Positions 23,991-51,755 of a stretch of DNA of 51,755 bases are shown one piece after another (position 1 is the stretch's first letter; each line of letters begins with the position of its first letter). The stretch lies in NCBI RefSeq assembly GCF_013184775.1, contig NZ_JAATVV010000019.1:1-51755 (forward strand), in the 5' to 3' direction. Origin of the DNA: Martelella sp. HB161492 (lineage in GTDB: Bacteria > Pseudomonadota > Alphaproteobacteria > Rhizobiales > Rhizobiaceae). The notes under the pieces were generated by a model that saw only the letters and a list, made by a program, of their open reading frames with translations, made no database searches and had not been told where the DNA came from. The position numbers and the translations under genes are program-made.

Positions 23991-24491
23991 TCAGTCCTTC
24001 AATTCGGGAACAACATTTTCGCGCATCATCCGACGGCGCTCGACATAGGCCGGCAGGATGTCGATATCGGGCTCGTTGAACCAGGCGAAGGGATCGGTCG
24101 CGGCGGTGAGCGCCACATTGGCCCAGGCATTGAAAGAGCCGGAGCGGATGATGACCTTGGCCTTCGGCGCGACGACCTCGACCAGTTCCTCGTGCGGCGT
24201 GGCAAGAAAGGGTGCGCCAGCGCCGGTGTAGATCTCCTGAAAGGTCTTGTAGAGATCGGGATGGCGATCGCGCACCGCCTTGTCGAAATGGACGGCCTCG
24301 ACGAACATTTCCTTGCGCAGCACCTTCAGGATGTCGATGACATCCGGAAGACCTTCGTAAAAGCCGAGATCGATACGGTTTGCATCTTTCGGAATCGGAA
24401 AGCCGGCATCGGTGACCAGTACGATGTCGCCATGACCGACGGTGGCCATGGCCTGAGCGAGACCGGGATGCAGGATATGGTTGGGGATCAT
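23991..24491 (-). CDS. RbsD/FucU-family sugar mutarotase
   Basis: This 166-residue protein matches the RbsD/FucU fold, which interconverts pyranose and furanose or the anomers of ribose or fucose. The N-terminal catalytic His lies in GHGDIVLVTDAGFP (about residues 19-32) and the C-terminal sugar-contact region reads RSGSFNAWANVAL. It is about 25 residues longer than typical members at the C-terminus. The ATG at 24491 has a strong AAGGAGG site. An in-frame longer version to 24617 has no such signal and is rejected. It is the first clear gene after the AraC-type promoter at 24741-24806. Confidence 0.88.
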   Translation of the reverse strand: MIPNHILHPGLAQAMATVGHGDIVLVTDAGFPIPKDANRIDLGFYEGLPDVIDILKVLRKEMFVEAVHFDKAVRDRHPDLYKTFQEIYTGAGAPFLATPHEELVEVVAPKAKVIIRSGSFNAWANVALTAATDPFAWFNEPDIDILPAYVERRRMMRENVVPELKD

Positions 24492-24571
24492 TTTCTCCTC
24501 CTTATGGTTTGAAACGGGTCGCGAAAAGCCACTGCAGACAGGGACAGCCCGGCAGCGGTTGATCGGCGAGA

Positions 24572-24667
24572 TCAGGGAAAGAACCGAAAGGCGCACTGAG
24601 CGTACGGGCCAGCGCAAGGCTCAGCCGGGCTCTGTTCGGCAATGCTTTTGAAAACGGCAAAAGACAT
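24572..24667 (-). CDS. Possible 31-residue leader ORF or gene remnant
   Basis: An ATG at 24667 has a strong GGGAGGAAACC ribosome site and opens a 31-codon frame (MSFAVFKSIAEQSP..., ending in RFFP). It lies at the head of the transcript from the AraC-type promoter, 80 bp before the mutarotase gene. It may be a leader peptide, or what remains of a deleted gene whose start signal survived. I recognise no homologue. Confidence 0.35.
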   Translation of the reverse strand: MSFAVFKSIAEQSPAEPCAGPYAQCAFRFFP

Positions 24668-24740
24668 GGTTTCCTCCCGAAATCTTTTGTGCCGGGCCGT
24701 GACGAGAGAACCTCCATCTCCGATCATGACCACGGTTCCG

Positions 24741-24806
24741 AATTTAGCAGGGAGGCCCTGAGCTGCCGATGGCGGCATCTCTCAAAAACATGGACAAAAT
24801 TCTCAT
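24741..24806 (-). promoter_or_regulatory. AraC-type operator and promoter, copy 1
   Basis: The operator (24780-24806, plus strand) has two TCTCA half-sites in direct repeat 21 bp apart, two DNA turns, with AAAACATGGACAAA between them. A -10-like TAAATT (24741-24746, minus strand) lies 33 bp away and no good -35 is present. The same arrangement occurs at 27536-27601 with the same spacing. It sits between the AraC gene and the mutarotase unit. Confidence 0.65.
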
Positions 24807-36739: not shown

Positions 36740-38368
36740 TCAGCGCTCGCGCAGCCGGCTTTCGACGAGAAGACCTTCCTCGTCGAGGATCGGGTGGGCA
36801 ACCGACACGAAATGGGCATTCATCCGCTTCAGGTCACGTAATATGTCGAGATGGACCGAGGATGTCTCGCGGCTCTCGGGCTTGCCCTCGCGCAGCCGGA
36901 TCAGGTGACGCTGCGCCGATTGCCTTTCATGCTTGCGCACCTCGATCTTCAGTTCCATCAGCCGCTTAGCGAGATCGCGATCACGCGTCATGAAGACGGT
37001 CTGCGCCATGCGCAGCACCTCGAAGGTGAGCAGGAACATGGCATCGAGCTCACGATAGCCTTCATCAGAGAAGTGCAGACCGAGCCCGACCTTCTTGCGC
37101 ACCTGCACGACCAGTCCCCGCTCGATGATGTCGCCGATATGCTCCAGATTGATCACGTAATCGAGGATGGTGATGCTGCGGCGGCGCTCTTCCTCGCTCG
37201 CCTCGCGGCCGAGACGGGACAGATAGGTCTTGACCTGCTGCTGGCAGAGGTCGACGCGCTGCTCCAGCAGCGAGACATCCGAAAGCTGAAGCAGATCATT
37301 CTTGCGAAAGGCCAGCCGCGTCTGCTCCAGCATCCGCTCGATATCATCGCCGATGGCCAGCGCCTGCCGGCTGGCACCCGCCAGCGCCAGCGCCGGCATG
37401 TCGAGAGCCGCCTCGTTCAGCCATTTCGCCGCCAGCGGCGTCTGGCGATCCGCATCAGGCAGAACATGTTCAAGACCATCGGAAAGGCGCCCCGCCACCG
37501 GCCAAACCAGCACGGCAAGCATCAGGTTGAAGACCAGATGTACCTCTACCGCAAGCCCGGTCAGCGTCAGCGGCAGTTCCCCCAGTCCGCTGGCAATCAG
37601 GTTGGCAAAGGGCATGGCAAGCGCACTGCCGGCAATGCGGATGACAAGGTTACCCGTCGTCAGGCGACGCGCCGAGGGTTTGCCGCCAAGCGTCGCGATC
37701 ACCGGCGGTATCGCCCCGCCAATATTGGCGCCAAGGACCATGACAACACAGAGACCGCCGGGAAGGCCGAGCGACAGAACCAGAAGAACGGCCGCCAGCG
37801 ACGAGGAACAGGCGGCAGCGATCAATGCGGCGGCGATCAGGGCGACCGGCCGCGCCTGATCGAGCATCGACAGAAAACTTGCCATGGCCGGCGCATCGCG
37901 CAGCGGCACGGTGGCAGCCTCCAGCAAGGTGATGGCGACCAGCATCAGCCCCACGCCGATCAGCGCCCGGGCGATGCCGCTGCGCAATGCGCCTTCACGG
38001 CGGCCGAGAATATAGCCCGCCAGCAACAGCGCCGGACTGAGTGCGGCAACCCCCGTTGAGATCACGAGGGCCGTCAGAGCCGTACCGACATTGGCGCCAA
38101 GCAGCACGATCTGCGCCATACGGCCCTTGATCAGTTCGCGTTCGACAAAAGAGGATGTCAGCAGCGCCGTCGCCGTCGATGACTGCAGGCCGAGCGTTGC
38201 GACCAGACCCGAGACAAAGGCACGCGACCCGGTTTTCGTGCCGAGACCAAGTGCCGTCTTCAGGCGCACGCCAAAGGCGGTCGTCACGCCATCACGCACG
38301 AGGCCAAGCCCGAACAGCAGCAGGGCGACTGATCCAGCAATCTGCAATACGACCAGAAGCGATCCCAA
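36740..38368 (-). CDS. Na/Pi cotransporter family protein with PhoU-like C-terminus
   Basis: This 542-residue protein has an N-terminal membrane half with the two inverted repeats of Na/Pi cotransporters. The first QSS motif is GLQSSTATALL (about residues 61-71). The second repeat reads AACSSSLAAVLL. A cytoplasmic PhoU-like helical domain covers about residues 340-540. It moves phosphate with sodium; direction is not deducible. The start is a TTG at 38368 after AGAGGGATCTGAT, with no suitable ATG nearby. It is divergent from the phosphatase gene at 38562, with a GntR operator between them. Confidence 0.85.
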   Translation of the reverse strand: MGSLLVVLQIAGSVALLLFGLGLVRDGVTTAFGVRLKTALGLGTKTGSRAFVSGLVATLGLQSSTATALLTSSFVERELIKGRMAQIVLLGANVGTALTALVISTGVAALSPALLLAGYILGRREGALRSGIARALIGVGLMLVAITLLEAATVPLRDAPAMASFLSMLDQARPVALIAAALIAAACSSSLAAVLLVLSLGLPGGLCVVMVLGANIGGAIPPVIATLGGKPSARRLTTGNLVIRIAGSALAMPFANLIASGLGELPLTLTGLAVEVHLVFNLMLAVLVWPVAGRLSDGLEHVLPDADRQTPLAAKWLNEAALDMPALALAGASRQALAIGDDIERMLEQTRLAFRKNDLLQLSDVSLLEQRVDLCQQQVKTYLSRLGREASEEERRRSITILDYVINLEHIGDIIERGLVVQVRKKVGLGLHFSDEGYRELDAMFLLTFEVLRMAQTVFMTRDRDLAKRLMELKIEVRKHERQSAQRHLIRLREGKPESRETSSVHLDILRDLKRMNAHFVSVAHPILDEEGLLVESRLRER

Positions 38369-38521: not shown

Positions 38522-38539
38522 AACCTGTTATAACCAGAT
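38522..38539. promoter_or_regulatory. HutC/GntR-type operator, site 1
   Basis: AACCTGTTATAACCAGAT, with the TTATAA dyad core typical of HutC-type GntR operators, lies 22 bp upstream of the phosphatase start. The same 18 bases occur at 46468-46485 next to the GntR gene. Confidence 0.75.
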
Positions 38540-38561
38540 TCATAACGCAAGGGAACATTGC

Positions 38562-39359
38562 ATGGAAGCCGGTCTTTCTGAAACAACGGACATCATGATC
38601 AAGGCTGCCCGCGCCGGAGCCGCCGTTGCGATGGATTATTTCAACCGTTCCACGCCGCTCAAGATGGTGGAAAAGGCACCGCGCGACTACCAGCTGGCAG
38701 CCGACGTCGCCACGGAACGCGCCATTATCGCGGTTCTGAGAGCCCATTTTCCGCAAGCAGGCATTTCCGGCGAAGAGGGAACGGGAGACCAGGCCGGCTC
38801 GGGCGCCATGCGTTTTCTGATCGACCCGATCGACGGCACATCCAATTTCGCCTTTAGGATTCCCTTCTTTGCCCAGGTGATCACCTGCCTGATCGACGGC
38901 GTGGCCGAAATCGGCGTCATCCTCGAGCCGGTCCGCGACGAAATCTTCGTCGCCGAGCGTGGCAAGGGCGCCTTTCTCAATGGCAGACGGCTTCCGTCCT
39001 GCGCCGATGTCGCTCCGGATCACGCCATTGTCGGTGTCGGCCTGCCAATCCCCGGCCAGGTGCGCGGCGTCGATGTCGAGCGCTACTTCGGCGCCGTGCG
39101 CCAGGTTTCAGATACGGCTGCCGTCACGCGCCGTCTCGGCTCGGCAGCCCTGTCGGTCGCCTATGTTGCGGCCGGCCGCCATCACGCCTGCTTCGAGGAT
39201 GGTCTCGACACGCTTGACTATCTCGCCTCCGCCCTGCTGCTGCGTGAATGCGGCGGCATCGTCACGGACTTTCAGGGCCGGGAGCAGAATGGCAATGGCG
39301 CCGTTCTTGCCAGTGTGCCCTCGCTGCACGGCTGGATGGTCAGCCTGTTTGCCGGCTGA
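38562..39359 (+). CDS. Inositol-monophosphatase-family sugar phosphatase
   Basis: This 265-residue phosphatase has the family signatures: GISGEEG (metal site), FLIDPIDGTSNF (DPIDGTxNF, metal-bound) and a C-terminal metal Asp in EDGLDTLDYLASALLLRECGG, where the usual WD is LD. It removes phosphate from inositol or sugar monophosphates. The ATG at 38562 is set by AAGGGAA and the operator position. It converges on the phosphodiesterase gene with a 20-bp overlap, and its promoter has the same operator as the transport operon. In acc loci the analogous enzyme is AccG (arabinose-phosphate phosphatase), which is my suggested parallel. Confidence 0.88.
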   Translation: MEAGLSETTDIMIKAARAGAAVAMDYFNRSTPLKMVEKAPRDYQLAADVATERAIIAVLRAHFPQAGISGEEGTGDQAGSGAMRFLIDPIDGTSNFAFRIPFFAQVITCLIDGVAEIGVILEPVRDEIFVAERGKGAFLNGRRLPSCADVAPDHAIVGVGLPIPGQVRGVDVERYFGAVRQVSDTAAVTRRLGSAALSVAYVAAGRHHACFEDGLDTLDYLASALLLRECGGIVTDFQGREQNGNGAVLASVPSLHGWMVSLFAG

Positions 39360-40170
39360 GACCCGCCAGCATCGCCGCCATGACCGCGGGCTCGTCGGTG
39401 GTGATCTGGTCAACGCCAACGGCAACAAGTGTCGCCAGGCTTTGTGAAGCCTCCGGATGCGTAGCGTTGAGCGTATAGGCATCGACCGTCTTGCCCTCGG
39501 CCTGAAACAGGCGCGCGAGATTGATCCCGCGCTTGAGACCGGCCAGAATGATCGGATATTCCAGATAGATGTAGCCGGCAAAGGGGGCTGCCGCCACGGC
39601 ATCTGCGGCAAATTCGGCAAACCGCCCGGAGGCATTCAGCGCCGCAAGCGTATCGTCCGTACAGGGATCATAGCCGATCGTGAGCCCTTCAAGCCCGCCG
39701 CCGAGCCGCTGCAGGCCCATGGCATCATCGCCCGACAGAACGAAATATCCGGCGATACCGGCCAGACATTCCCGGAAATGGTCAAAATGGGCCTGCTCCA
39801 GACTGTCGATCCGATCCTTGAAATCGAGCTGGATGCGCGTTCGGGAGACCGGTTTCGACGCCCGCACCGCCTCGCAGAGTTCGCCAAGCGTCATGGGTGG
39901 CGACCAGGTCGGCGCGCCCTTGTCGCCAAGCATCGACAGGGTTTCGATATCCTTCGTCGTCCGGCTTCTGACTGAACCGCTGCCGTCCGTCTCGCGATCA
40001 AGGGTCGCATCATGCAGGCAGACGAAGCCGCCGTCGCCGAGCGCCCTGAGATCGACCTCCATCGAAGCGCCATGGGCCAGTCCGGCCCAGAGACCGCTGC
40101 GATCGAAGGCGCAGTCATCAAGCCGCTGGCGCAGGCGATGCCATTTGAAAACCGGAAGTCGCGCTGTCAT
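39340..40170 (-). CDS. Glycerophosphodiester-phosphodiesterase-family protein
   Basis: This 276-residue protein has the GDPD catalytic layout: His-Arg in FKWHRLRQR, the Glu-x-Asp pair in SMEVDLRALGDGGFVCLHD and the second His in the same stretch, followed by ATLDRETDGSG. The usual HRG is HRL here and the PENT-like loop is replaced, so the substrate is probably not glycerophosphodiesters. It would hydrolyse a sugar phosphodiester; the acc phosphodiesterase AccF is the closest known role. The start overlaps the ATPase stop by 4 bp, so it is the last gene of the transport operon. Confidence 0.82.
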   Translation of the reverse strand: MTARLPVFKWHRLRQRLDDCAFDRSGLWAGLAHGASMEVDLRALGDGGFVCLHDATLDRETDGSGSVRSRTTKDIETLSMLGDKGAPTWSPPMTLGELCEAVRASKPVSRTRIQLDFKDRIDSLEQAHFDHFRECLAGIAGYFVLSGDDAMGLQRLGGGLEGLTIGYDPCTDDTLAALNASGRFAEFAADAVAAAPFAGYIYLEYPIILAGLKRGINLARLFQAEGKTVDAYTLNATHPEASQSLATLVAVGVDQITTDEPAVMAAMLAGLSRQTG

Positions 40171-41222
40171 TGCCCCGATGCCGCATTGGAGCGATAGACA
40201 TCTTCGCCGTCCCGGAACACCGAGTAATGCTGCGGACGCAGATGAATATGCTCGCCGGCCCTGACCGCTGCATCCGTTCCCGACTGGATCTTCAGCCGCT
40301 GGCCGGCCTCGCCTTCCGCTTCGATGATAAGATGGGTGCCAAAATGGATCACCCGGTCGACCCGCACACGCGCCGCAGCGGCGTCAGCCCCGCAAAGGAC
40401 CAGCCGCTCCGGCCGCATCGCAAGCGTTGCCGGACCGTCCGAAAACGGTACGGACAGATCGAATCCGCCGGCCCGGACCTTGCCGCCGGAAACATGCCCT
40501 TCGATCAGGTTCATCGCCCCGATGAACCCGGCGACGAAGGTGTCGCACGGATCGGCGTAGATATCGGCGGGCGCACCGATCTGGTTAACCTTGCCGACAG
40601 ACATGACCACGATCCGATCGGCGATCGCCAGGGCCTCATCCTGTCCGTGGGTGACGAAGACGGTGGTAATGCCAAGCTCGCGCTGAATATTGCGAACCTC
40701 CTCGCGCAGCCGCTCACGCAGATGCTGGTCAAGGCTGGCAAAGGGTTCATCCATCAGCAGGATTTTCGGCTCAAGCACGATGCAGCGGGCAATCGCGACA
40801 CGCTGCTGCTGACCGCCGGAAAGCCGCACCGGGCTGCGGTCGGCGTAACCGCCAAGCCCGACCAGTTCCAGGGCCGTCTCGACCTTGCGGCGGATCTCCG
40901 CCCGCGGCAGTTTCCGGAGCTTCAGCCCGAAGGCGATGTTGTCATAGACGCTCATATGCGACCAGAGCGCATGGCTCTGAAACACCATGGCCGTCGGCCG
41001 GCGTTCGGGCGGGCTTGCCGTCACGTCAGCGCCATCGATCAGCACCTGACCCGCACTCGGCCGCTCAAAGCCGCCAATGATGCGCAGCAATGTGGATTTT
41101 CCCGAGCCGGACGGACCGAGCAGGCAGACAAGCTCACCGGAGGCGATTTCCAGTGACACATCCTGAACCGCCACGGCATGTCCGTAGGACTTGGCAATAT
41201 CCTTCAATTCCAGTTTAGCCAT
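40167..41222 (-). CDS. ABC transporter ATPase (POPT/PotA-like)
   Basis: This 351-residue ATPase has Walker A GPSGSGKST (about residues 36-44), signature RLSGGQQQRVAIAR, Walker B ILLMDEPFASLD and the switch His in VFVTHGQDEA. A C-terminal TOBE domain covers about 250-340. It pairs with the two PotB/PotC-like permeases upstream in the operon (37 bp gap). The POPT family takes up polyamines, opines, phosphonates and phosphosugars. Confidence 0.93.
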   Translation of the reverse strand: MAKLELKDIAKSYGHAVAVQDVSLEIASGELVCLLGPSGSGKSTLLRIIGGFERPSAGQVLIDGADVTASPPERRPTAMVFQSHALWSHMSVYDNIAFGLKLRKLPRAEIRRKVETALELVGLGGYADRSPVRLSGGQQQRVAIARCIVLEPKILLMDEPFASLDQHLRERLREEVRNIQRELGITTVFVTHGQDEALAIADRIVVMSVGKVNQIGAPADIYADPCDTFVAGFIGAMNLIEGHVSGGKVRAGGFDLSVPFSDGPATLAMRPERLVLCGADAAAARVRVDRVIHFGTHLIIEAEGEAGQRLKIQSGTDAAVRAGEHIHLRPQHYSVFRDGEDVYRSNAASGQ

Positions 41223-41258
41223 TTCAATGCATTCCTGATAGTTCGGGGTGGTTCCGCC

Positions 41259-42068
41259 TCATGCGCCAAATCCCTTGGCGAACTGGTTCGAGGCCAGAAC
41301 CCTGCGCGCAAACAGAAGCGCAATGAAGGAAGGAACCCACAGCAGCACCGAGAGCACTGCGCCATATTGCACGACAATCTGACCGTTGATCATCTGCAGC
41401 ATGACCATCGGCATGGTGCGAAGCTTCGGCGCGCCGACAAGCCAGGCACCCTCGGTTTCGTAGAAGGTGGAAACGAATGTGAGCAGCATCGCCGCCCCGA
41501 TGGCCGGAGCCGCCTGCGGGATGGTGACGTGGAGGAAGGTGCGCAATGGCCCTGCCCCGACATCCCGGGCCGCCTCTTCAAGCCGCCGGTCAACCCCACG
41601 GAAGGCGGCTGACGGCAGCCAGATCATGATCAGCATGGTGTTGAGCAGCTGCACGAGCACGATGCCCCAGAACGTGCCGATCAGACCGAGGCTGAAGAAC
41701 AGCGTCGCGATCATGACGATCAGTCCGAAACGCGGAAAGGCGTTGATCGCAAGAAAGGACATCATGAAGGTGCGCCGCCCGACAAATTCCATGCGGGCAA
41801 AGGCATAGGCCGCCGGCAGGCAGATCACCGCCGAAAGCAGGGTGACCGTGACCGAAAGTGTCAGCGACAGGCGCAATGCCGAGAGAACATCGGCCCGCGC
41901 CAGTGTCGTATGCCAGTAGCGCAGCCCCCATTGCGTCGGAAGCAGCGAGGGATAGTACCATTTTTCGGCGAAGGCCCAGACAAAGACCGTACCGATCGGC
42001 ATGACCACATAGGCAAACAGAACCACGAAGATGATCGAGCCGACAATCGTGCTGAGACTGATCTTCAT
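41259..42068 (-). CDS. ABC permease, PotC-like
   Basis: This 269-residue inner-membrane protein has about six membrane segments starting at residue 10. Its EAA loop reads EEAARDVGAGPLRTFLHVTIP (about residues 165-185), the DVGAGP form typical of POPT and iron-type importers. It overlaps the preceding permease gene by 4 bp. Confidence 0.92.
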   Translation of the reverse strand: MKISLSTIVGSIIFVVLFAYVVMPIGTVFVWAFAEKWYYPSLLPTQWGLRYWHTTLARADVLSALRLSLTLSVTVTLLSAVICLPAAYAFARMEFVGRRTFMMSFLAINAFPRFGLIVMIATLFFSLGLIGTFWGIVLVQLLNTMLIMIWLPSAAFRGVDRRLEEAARDVGAGPLRTFLHVTIPQAAPAIGAAMLLTFVSTFYETEGAWLVGAPKLRTMPMVMLQMINGQIVVQYGAVLSVLLWVPSFIALLFARRVLASNQFAKGFGA

Positions 42069-42919
42069 ACGTCATCCCTCTTCGTCAGCATGACAACATA
42101 GAGAATGCCGAAGACGGCGCAGGTGATGAAGGTGACGACGGCCTGGGTTGCGGCAAAATCCGGTTCCCGCACATCCGAAAAGGTCCGCAGCATATAGGGG
42201 CCCATCATCTCCGGCGAGGCCGGTCCGAGCATGTAGGGGATCACGAAAGAGCCGAACAGGCTGATGACATTGAGCGCCAGAACCACCATCAGACTATCCG
42301 TGATCAGCGGCAGGATGATGCGGCGAAAGATCGTCACCGGCCCGGCACCGACATCCCGTGCCGCCTCGATTGCCTCCTGTGATACACGCGCCATGCCGGC
42401 CGTCAGGATCAGCAGCGTCAGCGGCAGATGATCCCAGATGAGGCCGATCACCGGCCCCCAGGCCGTGAGATAGGGCGAGCGGTACCAGTGGAAGCCCACG
42501 GTTTCGAGCAGCATCTGCAGCACACCGTTTGGTCCGATATAGCGGATCAGCGCATAGGCGACGATGATGCCCGGCACGAACATCGGGAAGAGCGCCAGCG
42601 CCTGAACCACTGCGGCAAGCCGGCTGCGGGTGAAGTGAAGATACATGGCGATGGGCAGGCAGATGACGACTAGCAGCACCAGCGTGACCGCCGTGGTCCA
42701 GATCGTCCTGAAATAATTGGCCATGCTGTAGGCATCGGCAAAGAAGCGATGATAGCGCGCCAGTGTCCAGGTGACGGTGCCATCGGCATCCGCCACCTGA
42801 AGGGTTTTGATGATCGACACGCCGGCGGGATAAAGGAGAAGCCCGACCATGACGATGAGCGGCAGGCTGACAAGAGCCAGCCCGCGCAGATTGCGTTTGA
42901 GAGCGTTCTCGGTTTCCAC
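42065..42919 (-). CDS. ABC permease, PotB-like
   Basis: This 284-residue inner-membrane protein opens with a membrane segment at about residues 12-32. The EAA loop is EAARDVGAGPVTIFRRIILP (about residues 184-203). It starts 18 bp after the binding-protein stop codon. With the PotC-like permease it forms the channel of the POPT-type importer. Confidence 0.92.
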   Translation of the reverse strand: METENALKRNLRGLALVSLPLIVMVGLLLYPAGVSIIKTLQVADADGTVTWTLARYHRFFADAYSMANYFRTIWTTAVTLVLLVVICLPIAMYLHFTRSRLAAVVQALALFPMFVPGIIVAYALIRYIGPNGVLQMLLETVGFHWYRSPYLTAWGPVIGLIWDHLPLTLLILTAGMARVSQEAIEAARDVGAGPVTIFRRIILPLITDSLMVVLALNVISLFGSFVIPYMLGPASPEMMGPYMLRTFSDVREPDFAATQAVVTFITCAVFGILYVVMLTKRDDV

Positions 42920-42937
42920 GACGCGGGCTCCGCAGGC

Positions 42938-44086
42938 TCAGTCGCGGGAAATGCCGGGAGCGACGTTGCGATACCAGCCATCATTGACCGCCGCTTCCCA
43001 TTCGCCATCCGGGAAAGCCGGAATGGAGCTCGGGATGATGTCGGCGTTGGCCGTGCGGGTCTCCTCGCTCAGATAGCTCCATTCGATCGCCGGGAAACCG
43101 GCAATCTGCAGCACGATCTGCTCCTGAACCTCCGGCGAGATCAGGACATCTGCGAGTTTCAGCGCAGTATCGCGATGCACCGAATTGGACGGAATGGTGC
43201 AGAAGGCATAGCCGCCGACAAAGGCGAGGTCCTTGAGCTGGGTAAGCTTGATATTGGGCGGCAGCTCACCCGATCGCATGCCGGTAAGTGCCTGGTCGGA
43301 CCAGGCCGGAACCATGGAGACGACACCGGAAACCAGCAGCTGCAGCGACGCCGTGTTGCCGGCAGTGTAGGAACCGTTCTGATACATGGATGGCCCCAGA
43401 TCCTTGAGGATATCCCAGGCCGGGGTGAGCATCGTCTCACCCTTTTCCTTGGTGTAATTGTCGGCGGTAAACAGCGAAGGGTCGCGGCCATTCGCTTCAT
43501 GAATGGCGCGGCGGACGAAATTGCCGCCAGCACCGCCCTTGTCGGGACGGTTGTAGATGAACTGGCCCTCATTGCCCTTGATGAAGGCGGTGAGCTCTTC
43601 CCATGTGGTCGGCGGCGTTTCAACGCGATCGGCATCATAGGCGAGCACGACCTGCGAGCCACGATAGGGAAGACCGAAATCGGTATCGATCGCCAGGCTG
43701 GAGAGCTTGGCATAATTGTCCATGTTGGCATCGGCAAAGTCGACCCAGAGACCAGCCTCGATGCCGCCGACCGTATTGCGCGGATTGAAGGCTTCCATCA
43801 GGTCGATCTGCGGATCGCTCTTGGTCTTCATTGCCGCCAGCGCACGATCGGCAAGCGCCATCATGCCTGAATTGCCATTGGCAACCGTGACGTTGACATC
43901 AACATCGGGCATCGAGGTTTTCAGCGCCGGCACGACGACATTCGACCAGAAATCGGCAATATTCTGGTCAGAACCAACAATGACCTCGACCGTTCCATCA
44001 GCTGCGAAGGAAATGCGGGGGGCAAGAACGAGAGCTGCGGCGGCAGCGGAGGCAGAGGCAAGAAATTCGCGACGTTTCATAGACAT
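42938..44086 (-). CDS. ABC transporter substrate-binding protein, Tat-type signal
   Basis: About 380 residues. The N-terminus (KRREFLASASAAAAALVLAPRISFA, then ADG) has the twin-arginine RRxFL motif followed by a hydrophobic stretch, so export by Tat is likely. The mature part resembles FbpA/PhnS/AfuA-like periplasmic binding proteins. Such proteins can bind phosphosugars, phosphonates or opines. The ATG at 44086 is given; the ATG at 44080 has slightly better spacing to GGGAAC, and a frame extension to 44131 overlaps the kinase gene. It precedes the two permeases directly. Confidence 0.87.
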   Translation of the reverse strand: MSMKRREFLASASAAAAALVLAPRISFAADGTVEVIVGSDQNIADFWSNVVVPALKTSMPDVDVNVTVANGNSGMMALADRALAAMKTKSDPQIDLMEAFNPRNTVGGIEAGLWVDFADANMDNYAKLSSLAIDTDFGLPYRGSQVVLAYDADRVETPPTTWEELTAFIKGNEGQFIYNRPDKGGAGGNFVRRAIHEANGRDPSLFTADNYTKEKGETMLTPAWDILKDLGPSMYQNGSYTAGNTASLQLLVSGVVSMVPAWSDQALTGMRSGELPPNIKLTQLKDLAFVGGYAFCTIPSNSVHRDTALKLADVLISPEVQEQIVLQIAGFPAIEWSYLSEETRTANADIIPSSIPAFPDGEWEAAVNDGWYRNVAPGISRD

Positions 44087-44114
44087 GTTCCCATCTTTTG
44101 TTGATTTGATATCT

Positions 44115-45059
44115 TCAGTCACTTGTTTCATTCAACGCGTTGAGGAGATCGCTCTCCCCGGGCAGACCGTGTCCACCATGAGCCGTCACCGCAGCGGACC
44201 CGCAGGCAACCGCTGCGCCGAGGACATTCGAAAGGCTCCAGCCCTTCAGCAGGCCATAGACAAAGCCGGCATTGAAACTGTCGCCGGCACCCGTGGTATC
44301 AACGACCGTGACGGGCAAGGCAGCCTGTTCCATCTCCGCGCCGTTGACCCGCGCGATCGCCCCCTTGGCGCCGCGCTTGAGAATAACGGCCGGCACATGA
44401 GCGGACAGAGCTGCAAGCGCCTCGCGGCAATCGGCAAGGCCGGTCAGCCGGGCTGCTTCCGTCTCGTTCAGGAAAAAGACGTCGAGATGGCTCAGGATCT
44501 CCGTCAGCCCTTTGTCCTGAAGCCCCTCATCGACATGCTGGCAATCGAGGCAACACAGCACACCAAGGCTGCGGGCATGGGCGAAAAGGTCGGCCAGTCC
44601 ATCGCGGCAGGTCAGCCCCTGCACCAGCAGGACGCGCGGGCGGAGCCTGTCGATATGCTGGCGCGAAGGCAATGTTTCCTCACCGGCGAAATGGCTGATG
44701 AAGCCGCGGTCTTCAGGCATGGAAAACGCCGCACTGACCCGGATACGCGGTTCCGCGCGGCGCTGGACGAGGCTCGTATCGATGCCAAGCCTTGCCGCCT
44801 CGGCCAGCATGAGCTGGCTGAAGATGTCGCTGCCGGCTTCGCACCACCAGCCGGCCTTGATATTGAGGAGCCGGAATGCCCGCGCCGTGGTGAAATTCGC
44901 CCCGGCAACCGCCTCAAAGCCATCTGACCAGATATCGCTGCCAAGCGTCGGAGGGCTGCGCAGGCCGGAAAAGATCAGGTCATAATAATACTCGCCGACC
45001 AGCAGCACCTCATGGGGACGATCCGGATCAGACGGCAGCTTCAGCTCCATCAGCGCCAT
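44115..45059 (-). CDS. PfkB-family sugar kinase
   Basis: This 314-residue kinase has the C-terminal catalytic motif DTTGAGDSFNAGFVYGLLKG (about residues 247-266) and an N-terminal sugar-binding region with VAGANFTTARAFRLL, where GG is replaced by AG. It phosphorylates a sugar or nucleoside; the substrate is unknown. It overlaps the GH4 gene by 10 bp, so the two are translated together, and it precedes the binding-protein gene. A second ATG at 45050, overlapping the GH4 stop codon, is a possible alternative start. Confidence 0.87.
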   Translation of the reverse strand: MALMELKLPSDPDRPHEVLLVGEYYYDLIFSGLRSPPTLGSDIWSDGFEAVAGANFTTARAFRLLNIKAGWWCEAGSDIFSQLMLAEAARLGIDTSLVQRRAEPRIRVSAAFSMPEDRGFISHFAGEETLPSRQHIDRLRPRVLLVQGLTCRDGLADLFAHARSLGVLCCLDCQHVDEGLQDKGLTEILSHLDVFFLNETEAARLTGLADCREALAALSAHVPAVILKRGAKGAIARVNGAEMEQAALPVTVVDTTGAGDSFNAGFVYGLLKGWSLSNVLGAAVACGSAAVTAHGGHGLPGESDLLNALNETSD

Positions 45060-46435
45060 TCTCCGGCAAATTCGGCATGGGTCGACAGATATTCGTCGAC
45101 CAGCGGCTCGGCACGCGAATAGGAGAGAACCAGCGGGTGGGCGACAAGAGCCTCGACCGCCAGATCGCGGCTTCGTGTGGCAATCGCACGGACCGCCAGA
45201 CGCTCATAACGCTTGATGTTGTGGATCAGCTGGGCGGGACCGTCAGGAATCGCGCCGATCTTCTTCGTCCTGATGCCATCGCCATCGACCACGCAGCTGA
45301 CCTCAACGACATCATCGTCTGCAAGTCCCTCAATAGCGCCGCCATTGCGCAGATTGAGGCCGATATGGCATTCAACACCGGTCTGCAGCGCGTCAATAAT
45401 GTTCAGAGCAACGCCTGCATAACCTTCGCCGACACCATCAGCCGCTTCCGAGCCGACCGCACGGATGGCCTTGTCGGCATCCTCCATGCTCGGCGCCTCT
45501 GGCCGAGCGTAATGCATATAAGTCGCTTCGCGCCGCTGTTCATAGGCGAAATAGGCTGAAAGCGCTGCTTCGGCATCGCGGTCGACACCGATCGCCGAGA
45601 GCTGCGCGACCAGATCGCGGTTGAGGTCACGCACCTCTTCGCCACGCGTGCGGGTATCGGCCTGAATATCGCCCAGCGCCTTTTCAGCATAGTAGAAATA
45701 GTAGAGATATTCGTTCAGCCACAGGCGATGGCGGCGGATGATCGCCGGATCGAAAATGCGCTGCGGCGTTTCGGCCAGAAAACTGTCATCGTCAAGAAGC
45801 CCCTGCAGGACCTCCTTGCCATCAACATAGGCCGCCCGCGTATAGGACAGGTGATTAAGCCCGAACACCTCCGCCTGAACCTCGCGCACGGAGACATCGA
45901 GTTTCTGGGCGACGGCTTCCTGCGCGGCGTTGGCGCCATCGCAGATGCCAACGACACGGTCAAAGCCGGCATCACTGAGGGCCTGGGCCACCAGGCCAGC
46001 CGGATTGGTGAAGTTGAAAAGCCAGGCATCAGGGCTGACGCGCTTCAGCAGACTTGCATATTCCGTAATGACGGGAATGCTGCGCAGAGCCATGGCGAAA
46101 CCACCCGGCCCGGTCGTCTCCTGCCCCAAAACTCCATGCGAGAGCGCGATACGCTCATCCTTGACGCGGCCATCCTCGCCACCAGGCCTGACCGTGGTCA
46201 CCACATAGTCGGCCCCCTCAAGCGCCCGCTCGGCGTCAAGCGAGGTGGTGATACGCACCGGAGACTGGACGCGACGGGTAATCTCCGCAGCTATTCCACC
46301 AAAGATCTCCAGCTTTTTCGCATCGACATCATGAAGGCAGATCTCCTTCAGCCCGCTGCGTTCCGCCCGGCGAAGGGCCGATGCCACAAAAAGGGGAGAC
46401 CTTACGCCGCCGCCACCAATCAAAGTCAGTTTCAC
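45050..46435 (-). CDS. GH4-family glycosidase, 6-phospho-beta-glucosidase-like
   Basis: This 461-residue enzyme has the NAD-binding motif LIGGGGVRSPLFVASAL at the N-terminus and the GH4 metal site: Cys in VGICDGANAA and His in VFGLNHLSY, the LNHLS form of the phospho-beta-glucosidase branch. GH4 enzymes cleave glycosides through a redox step at C3 using NAD and Mn, often on 6-phosphorylated substrates. It is the first gene of the transport operon, 33 bp downstream of the operator at 46468. It suggests the imported molecule contains a glycosidic bond. Confidence 0.9.
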   Translation of the reverse strand: MKLTLIGGGGVRSPLFVASALRRAERSGLKEICLHDVDAKKLEIFGGIAAEITRRVQSPVRITTSLDAERALEGADYVVTTVRPGGEDGRVKDERIALSHGVLGQETTGPGGFAMALRSIPVITEYASLLKRVSPDAWLFNFTNPAGLVAQALSDAGFDRVVGICDGANAAQEAVAQKLDVSVREVQAEVFGLNHLSYTRAAYVDGKEVLQGLLDDDSFLAETPQRIFDPAIIRRHRLWLNEYLYYFYYAEKALGDIQADTRTRGEEVRDLNRDLVAQLSAIGVDRDAEAALSAYFAYEQRREATYMHYARPEAPSMEDADKAIRAVGSEAADGVGEGYAGVALNIIDALQTGVECHIGLNLRNGGAIEGLADDDVVEVSCVVDGDGIRTKKIGAIPDGPAQLIHNIKRYERLAVRAIATRSRDLAVEALVAHPLVLSYSRAEPLVDEYLSTHAEFAGEWR

Positions 46436-46467
46436 GCTTGCACCTCAGATATAATCTGCGATGAGTG

Positions 46468-46485
46468 AACCTGTTATAACCAGAT
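46468..46485. promoter_or_regulatory. HutC/GntR-type operator, site 2
   Basis: The same 18 bases as at 38522-38539, located between the GH4 operon and the GntR gene. On the minus strand a TTGACA (46487-46492) abuts it, consistent with repression of the GH4 operon promoter. It may also control the GntR gene. Confidence 0.75.
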
Positions 46486-46559
46486 ATGTCAAGATAGGCT
46501 GTTGCCTTGAACCGCATTTTCATGCAACCAGTGACACGGGGAAATTTTTGCGGGAAACG

Positions 46560-47351
46560 ATGTCTGCTCGAACACCATCCATCAGCAGGGAAACCATGGA
46601 TCAGCTGGACCGAATGCGCCCGCTCGATCGTAGCGACCAGCAGCCGCTTTACCGTCAGGTGAAAGCGAGCATTCTCGAGGCGATCCGCGACGGCTCTCTT
46701 GCGCCCCACGCCAAGCTCATGTCGGAGCGCGAGCTTGTCAATTTCTATGGCGTCAGCCGCATCACCGTTCGTCAGGCGCTGATGGAACTGGTGCAGGAAG
46801 GACTTCTGCAAAGCCAGCCAGGCAAGGGCTTCTACGTCACGGGCAAGCACGAACCTTTCGAGCTTCACCTGCTGAAGAGCTTCACCTCAAATGCCATTGC
46901 CAAGGGCATGACCCCCGGCAGCCGGCTGATCGAGGCGAAGATCTGTCCGGCGCCTGCCGACATCACCCGGGCACTTTATCTGCCGGCGGCGGCGGACGTC
47001 GTGCTCTTGAAACGGCTGCGGACGCTCAACGGGACGCCGGTCGTCATTCAGTATGACTGGCTTGAACCCGGGCGCTGCCCTGGCCTGGTGACGCTGGACT
47101 GGTCCACCGGCAACCGCTCGCTCTACAAGGAACTCCACGAGCGCTACGGTCTGAGGCCGATGCGCGGACAGACGACCATCAGCGCGCGCTGCCCGGATGC
47201 GGAGGAAGAGCAGCTGCTTCAGCTTGAGCCGCGCTCTGCTGTGCTTACGCTCGACCAGGTCGCCTATGACGACGAAAATTACCCAATCAACGTCTCGACA
47301 TCCATCCATCACCCGCAACGCTATCCGCTGAGCATCCAGCAGGGCGAATAG
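46560..47351 (+). CDS. GntR-family regulator, HutC/UTRA subfamily
   Basis: This 263-residue regulator has a GntR winged helix-turn-helix (about residues 28-95: LMSERELVNFYGVSRITVRQALMELVQEGLLQSQPGKGFYV) and a C-terminal UTRA effector domain (about 105-255). UTRA proteins usually bind sugar phosphates, phosphonates or similar. The ATG at 46560 is chosen after GCGGGAAACG; a longer frame from 46461 would contain the operator itself, and ATG 46596 is another option. It is divergent from the GH4 operon and is the likely owner of both 18-bp operators. Confidence 0.9.
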   Translation: MSARTPSISRETMDQLDRMRPLDRSDQQPLYRQVKASILEAIRDGSLAPHAKLMSERELVNFYGVSRITVRQALMELVQEGLLQSQPGKGFYVTGKHEPFELHLLKSFTSNAIAKGMTPGSRLIEAKICPAPADITRALYLPAAADVVLLKRLRTLNGTPVVIQYDWLEPGRCPGLVTLDWSTGNRSLYKELHERYGLRPMRGQTTISARCPDAEEEQLLQLEPRSAVLTLDQVAYDDENYPINVSTSIHHPQRYPLSIQQGE

Positions 47352-47645: not shown

Positions 47646-50600
47646 ATGCGTCAGCCCAGTGACGAGACGTATCCGCAATCTGCAAAAGCCCCCCGCCAAG
47701 ACAAAAACCGTTCCGGCAAGAACAGACACTTGTCGGCCAAAACAAGGTGGATCGCATCTTCCATCCTGTTCCAGACGACGGCCCTGGCAGGCACGCTGGC
47801 AGGCGTTCCCCTGCCCTTTTACAATCGCGGTTTCTATTCAAGGGCCTATGCGGCTGCGACCTGCACGCCATCATCGACAAGCGCCTATGCCAGCAAGGAT
47901 GACGACGTTTCCAACGTCACCTTCAAATGCACGATTTCCTCATCGACAACGGTGACATCGCCGCAATATGCCTATGGCGGTGCGATGACCTGGTATCGGT
48001 CCCCAACCCCTAAATATTCCGGCAGTTATGGCTATTACAACGATTACGATCGGTTCCCCGAACACGGTCAGCGCGGGCTCACTATTTCGCTGTATAATTA
48101 TGCCGATATCAGCATTACCGAAACCCAGGATATCTCGGCGCTGATTGCCTTTGATGCACCCTACGGCACCAATTACTATTCCAAGAGCCAGTCGGATGCC
48201 ATTCGAGTCATCTCTTTCGGCAGCAATACTCACTCCGGCGGTGACGACAAATACAGCGCCGGCGGAGACGCAGGCGCGATCACGATTGTCAATACGGGCA
48301 GCATTGCCAGCACCGTCGGCAACGGCATCTATGCAGTCAGTTCAGGCGGCTACCCTTACAACAATGCCGATGGCGGCTCCGCCGGCGCCATCACGATTAC
48401 CGATAGCGGATCGGTTTCGGCGGCCGGAACGGCAATCCTGGCAATCAGCCGCGGCGGGGCTTCGTCCGGTGGAACCGGCGGCAGCGGCGGCACGGTCACC
48501 ATTACCGTTTCCGGCGACGTCGACACGATCACGTCTACATCCGCAGGCGGCGGGATCTTTGCGGCCTCATATGGCGGCAACAATCTCTATCTGAGCGAAA
48601 AGCGTGTTTATGAATATTGGGGCAACTTGTACCAGAACTATATTCAGGGTGGTACAGGCGGGAATGCCGGCGACGTTTCCGTCACGCTCGGTTCCAGTAC
48701 CAACGTGTTCAGCGGCTCGATCATCACAACGTCATCCGCCAAGATCGCCAGCATCTGGACCCAGACCGGGCGGACCAGCGGCGCGGCGATTTCCGCAATC
48801 AGCTATGGCGGCTGGGGCAACATGATCCAGGCCAGCGCCACAGTCTTTGATGGAGGAGACGGCGGAAATGTCTATGTAACGATCTACGGCGCCTCCACCA
48901 CCACACTCAAGACCTCCGGCGACCATTCCGACGGCATTTTCGCGGCGAGCTATGGCGGTGCCAGCGTTTATGGCTATGGACATGGCAAGGCAGGCGGAAC
49001 AGCCGGCAATGTGGCCGTGTCGCTGACCGGCGGCGGGACGATCTATACGGCGGGCGCGCATTCGAGCGGCATCGTTGCCATGTCGCTGGGCGGCGCCGGG
49101 CAGGAAACGACCAAAGCCCAAAGCACCTCATCCAGTGGCGGTGTGGCGGGCAATGTCACCGTCAAGAATGATTTCGCCATTACGACGAAGGGCAACTATT
49201 CAAACGGGATCGTGGCCATTTCCGCCGGATCGGGCGGTGGCCTCTATGAATGGAGCGGTTACGAGGCGTTCAACTGGGGCAGCTACAGCCTTGGCTCCAA
49301 TACCAGCGGCAATGTCAGCGTCTATAACTATGCCTCGATTGTAACCTACGGCGTCGATTCCCATGGCATTGTCGCCATGTCGATCGGCGGCGGCGGCGGT
49401 ATACTGACCTCAACCTCGACGCTTTCCACAGACAGCTATGGCGCCCTGACCTCCAGTAGCAGCGCCCAGACGCTTGGCGGATCGTCGCAATCCGCAGATG
49501 CGGCAGCCGTCCTTGTCATCAACAAGGGATCGATCACCACCCATGGCGGCTATTCCTCGACGGATACGGATACCGATTCCAGCACCGATATCGGTGGCGG
49601 CATCGCAATCCTGGCCCAGTCGATCGGCGGCGGCGGCGGCAACAATGTCGGCAAGGGTGCCTCAGGCTATGTCGGCGGCAAGGGCGACGCCGATGGCGGC
49701 GGCACCGGCTCGGATGGTTCAACCGTCACGGTGAAGAACTATGCCACGCTGACGACCTATGGTTCGGAAGCGCACGGCATCGTGGCACAATCGATTGGCG
49801 GCGGCGGCGGCACCGGCCGCAACAACGTGGGTTTCTTCTATGCCGTTGGCGGCACAGGCGGATCCGGCGGCGATGGCGGCACGGCAAAAGTCTACAATGA
49901 GTCTGATATCGTCACCTATGGCGACTATGCCTCCGGCATCATCATCCAGTCGATCGGCGGCGGCGGCGGCACGGGCGGCTCTGCCACGGCATGGTCTGTT
50001 TTCGGTGGCTCTCTGGCCATCGGCGGAAGTGGCGGATCCGGCGGCGATGGCGGCGATGCGATCTACGAGAAAAGCAGCAGCGGAACGGTCACGACATCAG
50101 GTGATGGCGCGACGGCGGTCATCGTGCAGTCAATCGGCGGCGGCGGCGGCACGGGCGGTGCGGCAAAATCGGAAACCTCCGCCCTTGCCTTTACCATGGC
50201 CGTTTCAATCGGCGGACAGGGTGGCGAAGGCGGTGATGGCGGAACTGCGACGGCCTATGCAGCGGGAACCATCAAGACATCCGGGACGGACGCCACCGGC
50301 CTGCTGGTGCAGTCGATCGGCGGCGGCGGCGGCGATGGCGGAACATCAACGGCAAGCGCGCTCGCGCTCGGCGTACCACTGGACAGCAGCGGCCACGCCT
50401 TCTCGCTGTCGATCACGAATTCCATCGGTGGTTATGCCGGGGACGGCGGTAATGGTGGTGACGCCAAGGCCTGGGTGGAAAAAAGCGGTTCGATCGTGAC
50501 AACGGGCGATGGTTCGAACGGCTTGGTGGTTCAATCCATCGGCGGCGGGGGCGGCAATGGTGGCGATGCCACGGCCTCTTCTGCGACAGCGACAATCGCC

Positions 50601-51755
50601 AGCATCATGGCCGAGCTTTCCGGCGACTGGGCCGAGATCAAGGAGGCAACCGCCGACAAGACCTTCACGCTGAAGGTCGACAGCACGGTCGGTGGAACGG
50701 GGGGCGATGGCGGAACCGGCGGCTACGCCTACGCCCATAATATGGGCTACATCTATACCGGCGGAAATTTCGCCACCGGCATGCTCGTGCAATCGATTGG
50801 CGGTGGCGGCGGAACCGGCGGCAGTGGCGAAAGCGACACAATCGGCTTCTTCGAGGATTCGTCCGTTGCAATCTCTGTCAATCTCGGCGGCGGTTCCGGG
50901 TCTGGCGGCGATGGCGGAACGGCAAAGGCGGGGGTTGCCGATTCAGGCATCCTTGTTACCAAAGGCAACAACTCCAATGCACTCGTCGTTCAGTCGATCG
51001 GCGGCGGCGGCGGTATTGGCGGTGCCGGCGGCGGCGATATCGAGGCCGATACGACCGTCACGATCAGTGCCGGTGCGACGGGTGGCGACGGCGGCGACGG
51101 CGGCAAGGCCTATGCCTGGAACAATGGCAAGATTGTCACCTCGGGCGATGCCTCCAGCGGTGTCGTTGTCCAGTCCCTCGGCGGCGGTGGCGGTATTGGC
51201 GGCTCCGGCACCAGTTCCGTTTCCCATGCGAACTCGATCGACGCCGAACTGAAGGAATTCGAGAACTACCACATCTCCCTCGTCTATGCCGGGACGGTGG
51301 AAACCAAGCTGTCGGGCACTGCGGCCGCATCCGGTGGCGACGGCGGCAATGGCGGCATGGTGGTCTTCGGCACCAGGGTCAAGGGCAGCTCCGATTATTC
51401 CTACGGCAGCATCACGACGTCCGGCGCCCTTTCCCACGGCGTCGTTGCCCAGTCGATTGGCGCCGGCGGCGGCACCGTATCGCTCAGTTCGAACCAGACC
51501 ACCACCGAGAATGTTCTCGTCAACAGCATAACGGTCGATGCCTCCATTGCCCTTGGCTCAACATCGTCCGAAACCGGCGGAACAGGCGGTTCCGTCTATG
51601 CCTATGTCTCGAACATCTACACCTCAGGCTTTTCTTCCATCGGCGTCATTGCCCAATCGATTGGCGGCGGCGGCGGCATCGGCGTGATGAGCGGCTATGC
51701 GCCGACATCGCTTGCCGTGACGCTGGGTTCAACGGAATCGGACGCGGATGAAAGC
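47646..51755 (+). CDS. Giant autotransporter-type adhesin, 3' end off the window
   Basis: The frame is open for 1370 codons from the ATG at 47646 to the window end. AAGG lies 9 nt upstream of the start. Residues 1-70 form an extended basic n-region and hydrophobic core (TALAGTLAGVPLPFY) ending in AYAA, nearly the same as in the gene at 1-6144. The passenger carries the same glycine-rich modules (QSIGGGGG), at least a dozen copies, and aligns with the left paralogue module by module, for instance FSSIGVIAQSIGGGGGIG near the right edge. The barrel is not in the window. Likely a surface adhesin; its partner gene reads in the opposite direction. Confidence 0.9.
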   Translation, partial: MRQPSDETYPQSAKAPRQDKNRSGKNRHLSAKTRWIASSILFQTTALAGTLAGVPLPFYNRGFYSRAYAAATCTPSSTSAYASKDDDVSNVTFKCTISSSTTVTSPQYAYGGAMTWYRSPTPKYSGSYGYYNDYDRFPEHGQRGLTISLYNYADISITETQDISALIAFDAPYGTNYYSKSQSDAIRVISFGSNTHSGGDDKYSAGGDAGAITIVNTGSIASTVGNGIYAVSSGGYPYNNADGGSAGAITITDSGSVSAAGTAILAISRGGASSGGTGGSGGTVTITVSGDVDTITSTSAGGGIFAASYGGNNLYLSEKRVYEYWGNLYQNYIQGGTGGNAGDVSVTLGSSTNVFSGSIITTSSAKIASIWTQTGRTSGAAISAISYGGWGNMIQASATVFDGGDGGNVYVTIYGASTTTLKTSGDHSDGIFAASYGGASVYGYGHGKAGGTAGNVAVSLTGGGTIYTAGAHSSGIVAMSLGGAGQETTKAQSTSSSGGVAGNVTVKNDFAITTKGNYSNGIVAISAGSGGGLYEWSGYEAFNWGSYSLGSNTSGNVSVYNYASIVTYGVDSHGIVAMSIGGGGGILTSTSTLSTDSYGALTSSSSAQTLGGSSQSADAAAVLVINKGSITTHGGYSSTDTDTDSSTDIGGGIAILAQSIGGGGGNNVGKGASGYVGGKGDADGGGTGSDGSTVTVKNYATLTTYGSEAHGIVAQSIGGGGGTGRNNVGFFYAVGGTGGSGGDGGTAKVYNESDIVTYGDYASGIIIQSIGGGGGTGGSATAWSVFGGSLAIGGSGGSGGDGGDAIYEKSSSGTVTTSGDGATAVIVQSIGGGGGTGGAAKSETSALAFTMAVSIGGQGGEGGDGGTATAYAAGTIKTSGTDATGLLVQSIGGGGGDGGTSTASALALGVPLDSSGHAFSLSITNSIGGYAGDGGNGGDAKAWVEKSGSIVTTGDGSNGLVVQSIGGGGGNGGDATASSATATIASIMAELSGDWAEIKEATADKTFTLKVDSTVGGTGGDGGTGGYAYAHNMGYIYTGGNFATGMLVQSIGGGGGTGGSGESDTIGFFEDSSVAISVNLGGGSGSGGDGGTAKAGVADSGILVTKGNNSNALVVQSIGGGGGIGGAGGGDIEADTTVTISAGATGGDGGDGGKAYAWNNGKIVTSGDASSGVVVQSLGGGGGIGGSGTSSVSHANSIDAELKEFENYHISLVYAGTVETKLSGTAAASGGDGGNGGMVVFGTRVKGSSDYSYGSITTSGALSHGVVAQSIGAGGGTVSLSSNQTTTENVLVNSITVDASIALGSTSSETGGTGGSVYAYVSNIYTSGFSSIGVIAQSIGGGGGIGVMSGYAPTSLAVTLGSTESDADES

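What the first reader, a model, noticed from the sequence alone, without database searches (positions are those of the whole stretch)
38522..47351. Candidate new pathway for a sugar phosphodiester: POPT importer, phosphodiesterase, phosphatase, GH4 glycosidase and kinase
The operon couples a POPT-type importer to a GDPD-family phosphodiesterase and, via a shared operator, to an inositol-monophosphatase-type phosphatase. The known acc (agrocinopine) system uses the same logic: import, phosphodiester cleavage (AccF), sugar-phosphate dephosphorylation (AccG). Here a different transporter type, a GH4 phospho-glycosidase and a PfkB kinase are added, and the regulator is HutC-type. The substrate could be an agrocinopine-like opine, a glycerophospho-sugar or a glycosylated inositol phosphodiester.
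Basis: inference. Interest (0 to 1): 0.8.

Follow-up and report, generated by a model that had tools for sequence, protein, structure and literature searches.

The report
Phosphodiester-sugar uptake and breakdown operon
A soil-type bacterium carries one co-regulated gene set that probably imports a phosphate-linked sugar compound and takes it apart inside the cell; it joins a widespread uptake-and-phosphate-removal module to a separate sugar-cutting module.

Summary
A seven-gene minus-strand operon (GH4, PfkB kinase, binding protein, two permeases, ATPase, GDPD) lies between a divergent HutC-type regulator and a convergent inositol-monophosphatase-type gene. One 18-bp site stands before both transcription units; related sites recur at both places in four of four other syntenic clusters (weakly in one). 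The cluster is two modules fused. (1) Importer, GDPD and phosphatase form a conserved core: of the best 80 relatives, 56 have the GDPD and 73 the phosphatase. (2) Regulator, GH4 and kinase recur in Sinorhizobium and Shinella with a different, sugar-type importer and no GDPD or phosphatase. Best reading: a phosphodiester-linked glycoside is imported, its diester cleaved, the phosphate removed, and the glycoside split by kinase plus NAD-dependent phosphoglycosidase. The substrate is unproven. Some relatives carry genes nearest to inositol-pathway models (below cut-off), so an inositol phosphodiester is my leading guess; an agrocinopine-like diester stays possible. It is not the acc system (regulator class differs). 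My searches of an open-access library found no description. New variant of a known kind; interest 0.5.

The parts
46468..46485 (.). Operator 1 (AACCTGTTATAACCAGAT), 32 bp from the GH4 start and 74 bp from the likely regulator start
   Evidence: Exact 18-mer shared with 38522; related sites at the GH4 promoter in L007, L012, L047, L048, L131, L132, L133
38522..38539 (.). Operator 2, same 18-mer, 22 bp before the phosphatase start
   Evidence: the site before the phosphatase ranks 3rd in L007 and 2nd in L012, L047 and L048, of 18,796 to 24,793 positions
46560..47351 (+). HutC-subfamily GntR regulator (GntR + UTRA); the longest frame starts at 46461 but would contain the operator
   Evidence: Pfam PF00392, PF07702; 71-73% identical regulator in L007, L012, L047, L048
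45050..46435 (-). GH4 glycosidase, phospho-glycosidase-like (NFTNPAG, CDGAN, GLNHLS)
   Evidence: Pfam PF02056 + PF11975; nearest solved relatives 6-phospho-beta-glucosidases 5c3m, 1s6y, 1up4-1up7
44115..45059 (-). PfkB-family carbohydrate kinase
   Evidence: Pfam PF00294; no NCBIfam cut-off reached
42938..44086 (-). Periplasmic solute-binding protein (start at 44086 or 44080)
   Evidence: Pfam PF13416, PF01547; model pLDDT 84.9 with binding-protein fold
42065..42919 (-). ABC permease 1
   Evidence: Pfam PF00528
41259..42068 (-). ABC permease 2
   Evidence: Pfam PF00528
40167..41222 (-). ABC ATPase with TOBE_2 domain
   Evidence: Pfam PF00005, PF08402; best NCBIfam row PhnT2 343.2 bits, below its cut-off 457.7
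39340..40170 (-). GDPD-family phosphodiesterase
   Evidence: Pfam PF03009; H11, R12, E38, D40, H53, D116, K118 invariant in 26 sequences, window included; model pLDDT 95.1, nearest folds mostly GDPDs
38562..39359 (+). Inositol-monophosphatase-family phosphatase, convergent to the operon
   Evidence: Pfam PF00459; DPIDGT invariant in 9 sequences, window included (residues 88-93)
36740..38368 (-). Na/Pi cotransporter with PhoU domain, divergent from the phosphatase; membership in the system uncertain
   Evidence: Pfam PF02690, PF01895; similar proteins found in L047, L048 and L105 only

Best explanation
The cluster imports a small phosphodiester that carries a glycosyl part and dismantles it in the cytoplasm. 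The binding protein and ABC importer bring it in intact. The GDPD splits the diester, the IMPase-family enzyme removes phosphate from the released phosphate ester, the PfkB kinase puts a phosphate on the freed glycoside (or its sugar), and the NAD-dependent GH4 enzyme cuts the phospho-glycoside into a sugar phosphate for central metabolism. The HutC-type regulator, acting as repressor, sits on copies of one operator and releases both transcription units when an inducer appears. Shown by sequence: gene families, operon layout, shared and conserved operator, conserved core, modular origin. Inferred: diester substrate, order of steps, kinase before GH4, repressor action. Leading substrate guess: an inositol (cyclitol) phosphodiester such as a glycosylated glycerophosphoinositol.
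For: Core co-occurrence: in the best 80 of 227 binding-protein relatives the GDPD lies within 9 kb in 56 and an IMPase in 73; 2 of the 7 IMPase misses end at the contig end. The 24 GDPD-less loci are one nested clade, so one loss suffices. In a sample drawn by binding protein alone, GDPD in 18 and IMPase in 18 of 25 loci (at least three contigs are also in the 80). Remote binding-protein relatives in Deinococcus and Enterococcus are annotated beside GDPDs, of another branch than this one. Operator related at both promoters in five of five clusters, weak in L007. Regulator-GH4-kinase trio with another importer elsewhere; the S. meliloti one has a binding protein nearest to alpha-glycoside binders (titles). 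GH4 has phospho-type motifs, against CHSV, CHEV and CHGV in the genome's three other GH4s. The binding proteins of the five clusters are one clade on a long branch, 0.59, and their GDPDs read HRL where the 58 others read HRG or HRA, as expected for a shifted substrate. IolE- and IolG-like genes lie directly upstream of the core in Devosia L103, L105, L114, L123.
Against: No protein reaches the cut-off of a characterised NCBIfam family in the rows shown. The binding protein has no PDB sequence relative, and its fold matches plain-sugar binders as well as it matches AfuA. 24 of 80 loci keep importer and phosphatase without this GDPD, so a phosphomonoester could be the common ligand. A sister binding-protein group (43-48% identical) has no GDPD match in 7 of 7 loci. 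GDPDs of this subfamily also occur away from the importer: an ATPase over 400 bits adjoins in 12 of 30 places of the family sample (short loci). GDPD is the least conserved of the cluster proteins whose identity I have (52-55%, against 76-79% for the binding protein and 85-87% for GH4). IolE and IolG models are matched well below cut-off (142 of 290 and 107 of 355 bits), and such pairs can also cleave glycosides by oxidation (recalled).
Confidence: 0.55

Rival explanations
1. A Ugp-like glycerophosphodiester phosphate-scavenging importer that by regulatory merger shares a regulator with an independent glycoside pathway; GDPD and GH4 never act on one molecule.
For: The two modules exist apart, each with its own importer. 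The ATPase scores 326.2 bits against UgpC.
Against: In the five merged clusters the POPT-type importer follows the kinase in the place where the Sinorhizobium clusters have their sugar importer, so the GH4 half has no other importer inside the cluster (L007 has another ABC ATPase about 4 kb beyond the GDPD). The UgpC cut-off of 432 is not reached. A phosphatase is not needed for glycerol-3-phosphate (recalled biochemistry).
Confidence: 0.15
2. A phosphomonoester importer like AfuABC (sugar phosphates) in which the phosphatase is the key enzyme and the GDPD is accessory.
Against: GDPD loss needs only one event inside the tree and the catalytic residues are kept. Annotated GDPDs accompany remote relatives.
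Confidence: 0.15
3. An agrocinopine-like opine or other sugar-sugar phosphodiester: GDPD releases a disaccharide and a sugar phosphate, the phosphatase frees the sugar, and kinase plus GH4 split the disaccharide.
For: Same import, phosphodiesterase, phosphatase logic as acc (PMC4526662, passages). The GH4-kinase trio in S. meliloti comes with a binding protein nearest to alpha-glycoside binders, which would suit a sucrose-like product.
Against: The regulator is GntR/UTRA, not DeoR. The core occurs in Ketogulonicigenium, Alloyangia, Celeribacter and Devosia, for which I know of no crown-gall link. AccF and AccG were not available for direct comparison.
Confidence: 0.1
4. Iron, polyamine or 2-aminoethylphosphonate importer with unrelated neighbours.
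For: The ATPase's best NCBIfam row is PhnT2 (343.2 bits); 4r6y (recalled as a 2-AEP binder) and a ferric binding protein head the Foldseek list.
Against: All such rows are below cut-off, and no enzyme of phosphonate, iron or polyamine metabolism is in the cluster.
Confidence: 0.05

Closest known systems
acc (agrocinopine catabolism) operon of Agrobacterium
   Different: AccR is DeoR-family against GntR/UTRA here; AccBCDE has four importer parts besides AccA against three here; GH4 and PfkB are added here; AccF and AccG were not compared
UgpBAEC-UgpQ of Escherichia coli (recalled)
   Same: ABC importer in one operon with a cytoplasmic GDPD
   Different: UgpC cut-off not reached (326.2 of 432); phosphatase, kinase and glycosidase added
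AfuABC hexose-phosphate importer (PMC4546632)
   Different: No PDB sequence match at E 1e-5; GDPD present here
Sinorhizobium meliloti pSymB GntR-GH4-PfkB cluster (GH4 at 1,389,581-1,390,960 of NC_003078)
   Same: GH4 71%, kinase 47%, regulator 50% identical, same order, related operator (strain ml28)
   Different: Importer annotated as carbohydrate type; no GDPD or IMPase match in 25 kb; I found no report of its substrate

Membership tests
GDPD family | PF03009 above cut-off and catalytic residues (H-R, E-x-D, H, metal acid, K; roles recalled) | tested here: met
   43.7 bits against 23.6; residues invariant in 26 sequences; nearest folds mostly GDPD
GH4 | PF02056 and PF11975 above cut-off | tested here: met
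   142.7 and 142.3 bits
GH4 6-phospho-glycosidase subgroup | Acts on 6-phosphorylated glycosides | tested here: inconclusive
   Nearest solved relatives are 6-phospho-beta-glucosidases, 189-217 bits, against 125-127 for phospho-alpha enzymes; CDGA differs from the CNVP of the former; activity cannot be tested here
Inositol monophosphatase family | PF00459 above cut-off and DPIDGT metal motif (motif recalled) | tested here: met
HutC subfamily of GntR regulators | GntR HTH plus UTRA domain | tested here: met
acc agrocinopine system | DeoR-family repressor AccR | tested here: not met
   Regulator is GntR/UTRA; AccR class from PMC4526662 passages
acc agrocinopine system | Orthologous AccF and AccG | not tested
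   NC_011990 and MK318973 are not in the collections
Ugp system | UgpC model cut-off | tested here: not met
   326.2 of 432 bits
POPT importer class | Placement in the transporter classification | tested here: inconclusive
   ATPase and permeases match PhnT2, PotA, PotB, PotC, PhnV and similar models below cut-off
AfuABC sugar-phosphate importers | Homologous binding protein with a phosphosugar pocket | tested here: inconclusive
   Fold match only

The most novel reading that the evidence does not exclude
The core is an unrecognised, widespread importer-hydrolase system for inositol phosphodiesters (glycerophosphoinositol type), and this locus is its glycosylated branch: a route for the head groups of glycosylated inositol phospholipids or sphingolipids from plants, fungi or bacteria, ending in an ATP-kinase plus NAD-dependent phosphoglycosidase step.
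Probability: 0.2. Interest if true: 0.75.

Novelty: new variant of a known kind. Interest (0 to 1): 0.5.

Why it matters
Inositol phospholipids and glycosylated inositol phosphodiesters are abundant in plant and fungal debris (general knowledge), and I found no bacterial uptake route for the intact diesters in the listings I saw. The conserved core gives a handle in many Rhizobium, Devosia and Rhodobacterales species. The swap of one GH4-kinase cassette between a sugar importer and a phosphodiester-type importer makes the substrate testable by comparing the two.

Tried and rejected
Literature: ten searches. In the listings shown (at most 15 titles each) nothing describes this cluster or a bacterial glycerophosphoinositol importer. 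The library lacks most subscription papers, and PMC1635973 (the S. meliloti transportome paper) is not held. The six locus tags were guesses from memory; 0 papers. Papers: PMC4526662, PMC6546132 and PMC12239276 seen as passages, PMC4546632 as abstract, PMC10628242 as listing.

PDB sequence search with the binding protein, alone or as a profile, found nothing. Fold comparison does not separate sugar binders from phospho-ligand binders. The second GDPD of this genome (38% identical, G000:C50) sits beside a polyprenyl synthetase, a different context, and was set aside. The GH4 genes near the core in Devosia L103 and L126 are CHSV-type, unlike this one. Alpha-mannosidase genes 5.4-8.6 kb from the binding protein in four GDPD-less Rhizobium loci, with transketolase and other genes between, were not used as evidence. 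A first ORF-based context map suffered from shadow frames; counts come from tblastn, whose script stopped with an error after the rows used here had printed. 'No GDPD' means no tblastn match to this subfamily's GDPDs; the same queries also miss the annotated GDPDs of L145 and L146. Queries made from those two gave no match over 60 bits in the seven sister loci or in the 24 GDPD-less loci.
Full report
The genes. The window lies in a 5.28-Mb genome of 52 contigs. On the minus strand, GH4 (45050-46435), PfkB (44115-45059), binding protein (42938-44086), permeases (42065-42919, 41259-42068), ATPase (40167-41222) and GDPD (39340-40170) follow one another with overlaps or gaps of 18-36 bp. The regulator (46560-47351) is divergent; the IMPase-type gene (38562-39359) is convergent and overlaps the GDPD end by 20 bp. 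All nine pass Pfam cut-offs. None reaches an NCBIfam cut-off in the rows shown.

The shared operator. AACCTGTTATAACCAGAT stands at 38522 and 46468, expected 0.00 in 100 shuffles at up to 3 mismatches. Its 14-bp core has no other place in the genome at up to 1 mismatch; the pattern read backwards has 5. I picked the GH4-promoter sites of other loci by eye, built a matrix from GH4-promoter sites only, without the tested locus's own, and scanned each locus. The site before the phosphatase gene ranks third of 18,796 positions in L007, second of 24,793 in L012, second of 21,123 in L047 and second of 21,120 in L048. Single-base shuffles of that upstream stretch reach its score in 8, 1, 0 and 0 of 2000. 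The L007 site is weak (8.8 bits). L047 and L048 are close relatives and not independent, and the window's GH4 site, identical to its phosphatase site, is in the other loci's matrices. The GH4-promoter copy follows TTGACA in the window, L007, L012, L131, L132 and L133 (read by eye); the -10 is not clear. Over 111 loci, five exceed 24 bits and hold a regulator at least 55% identical to the window's; the next scores 13.7. Four of these five contributed to that matrix (directly or through an identical site), so only L066 is a free test. It has the regulator, importer and phosphatase but no GH4, no GDPD and no second operator at its phosphatase.

Module one, the importer core. A profile of the binding protein found 227 relatives in the GTDB collection, of which the best 80 were kept. 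Within 9 kb, a GDPD of this subfamily is present in 56 of 80 and an IMPase in 73 of 80; two of the seven IMPase misses (L114, L126) end at the contig end. The IMPase gene points against the operon in 64 and along it in 9. The 24 GDPD-less loci form a single clade inside the tree (support 100/99), so one loss suffices. These 80 are weighted to Rhizobium. In 297 genomes of the order, 22 have the binding protein at E 1e-40 or better, at 26 places. I fetched 24 of these (all but the window and G128, the latter fetched) plus one from the phylum sample, where 4 of 398 genomes matched. At least three of the 25 contigs (L176, L179, L200) have the lengths of contigs among the 80 and are probably the same. 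GDPD occurs in 18 of 25 and IMPase in 18 of 25. Of these, the GDPD of L195 lies about 6 kb off on the other strand, and the IMPase of L194 is a weak match (105 bits) about 8 kb off. Six of the seven GDPD-less ones belong to a sister binding-protein group at 43-48% identity. With L144 that group counts seven loci: 0 of 7 with GDPD, 4 with GH38 alpha-mannosidase, 6 with a ROK protein, 6 with a TIM-barrel isomerase, 5 with a Gfo/Idh/MocA oxidoreductase (queries taken from L144, which counts among the seven). Remote relatives (about 32% identical) in Deinococcus aetherius and Enterococcus casseliflavus are annotated beside a GDPD and a CehA/McbA metallohydrolase; these GDPDs are not matched by queries of this subfamily. 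Roseinatronobacter has a GDPD of this subfamily and a CehA/McbA protein. Seen from the GDPD side, 29 of 297 genomes of the family have one, at 30 places; a POPT-type ATPase over 400 bits adjoins 12 of the 30 (loci of about 3.8 kb).

Module two, the glycoside cassette. Regulator, GH4 and kinase recur in Sinorhizobium meliloti (GH4 71% identical, kinase 47%, regulator 50%), S. medicae (72, 47, 48) and Shinella oryzae (70, 49, 49). In the two Sinorhizobium records an importer annotated as carbohydrate type follows; the Shinella record has no annotation, but ATPase and permease matches follow there too, and none of the three has a GDPD or IMPase match in the stretch fetched. The S. meliloti binding protein is nearest, by sequence, to structures titled alpha-glycoside-binding protein and to a trehalose/maltose binder. 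Their binding proteins form one clade (100/100) on a long branch of 0.59. The window's GDPD and those of these four loci read KWHRL; of the other 58 loci scored, 50 read KWHRG and 8 KWHRA. One close GH4 relative only, the window's own, was found in 385 genomes of the class at E 1e-60, so the cassette is rare outside its family.

How it works, and what is inferred. In the merged clusters the POPT-type importer takes the place that the sugar importer has in Sinorhizobium, so both halves most likely serve one imported compound. Diester cleavage, removal of the phosphate and re-phosphorylation for GH4 is the simplest order. A dedicated phosphatase suggests that the GDPD product is not glycerol-3-phosphate. 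The inositol lean comes from Devosia (L103, L105, L114, L123), where an isomerase and an oxidoreductase lie directly upstream of the core on the same strand. Representatives (L105 isomerase, L114 oxidoreductase) match IolE at 142 bits over nearly the full length and IolG at 107 bits over the N-terminal domain, best of the NCBIfam models listed, but below the cut-offs of 290 and 355. The window's genome has an IolE above cut-off elsewhere (G000:C10). Proteins of these two superfamilies also deglycosylate by oxidation (recalled; a related paper, PMC10628242, was seen in the listing only), so this is a lean, not proof.

Comparison. acc: same logic by the passages read of PMC4526662, different regulator class, AccF and AccG not compared. 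Ugp: cut-off not reached. AfuABC: fold only. Verdict: real, conserved, modular, substrate unknown, new variant of a known kind.

Noticed in passing
window 47646-51755 (+), runs off the window end: Frame of at least 1370 aa, very rich in glycine, serine and threonine, with repeated QSIGGGGG-like units and no Pfam match at E 1e-6; looks like a large repetitive surface or autotransporter-type protein.
   Followed up: partly
window 36740-38368 (-): Na/Pi cotransporter with PhoU domain next to the phosphatase and its operator; similar proteins (31-43% identical) near the phosphatase in L047, L048 and L105. May handle released phosphate.
   Followed up: partly
L135 (G000:C50), L139 (G222): A GDPD of the same subfamily stands directly beside a polyprenyl synthetase gene in this genome and in another of its genus.
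   Followed up: partly
L009 8932-17083 and L011 8953-17001: Rhizobium leguminosarum and Sinorhizobium sp. B11 clusters with two GDPDs, IMPase, LacI regulator and a carbohydrate-type importer: another unexplained GDPD-IMPase pairing.
   Followed up: no
L128 4880-9687, L148 2486-7750: Importers annotated as iron-type (AfuABC-like layout) in Pantoea plasmids, followed by an IMPase gene.
   Followed up: no
L144, L193, L194, L196, L198, L199: Sister binding-protein group beside ROK and TIM-barrel isomerase proteins, mostly also Gfo/Idh/MocA, and GH38 alpha-mannosidase in four, with no GDPD; the two L144 enzymes are nearest to IolE and IolG models. Possible mannoside or mannosyl-cyclitol pathway.
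   Followed up: partly
L146 5076-11138: Enterococcus casseliflavus plasmid with GDPD, ABC importer and CehA/McbA hydrolase; its binding protein is a remote relative (32%) of this one in Bacillota.
   Followed up: no
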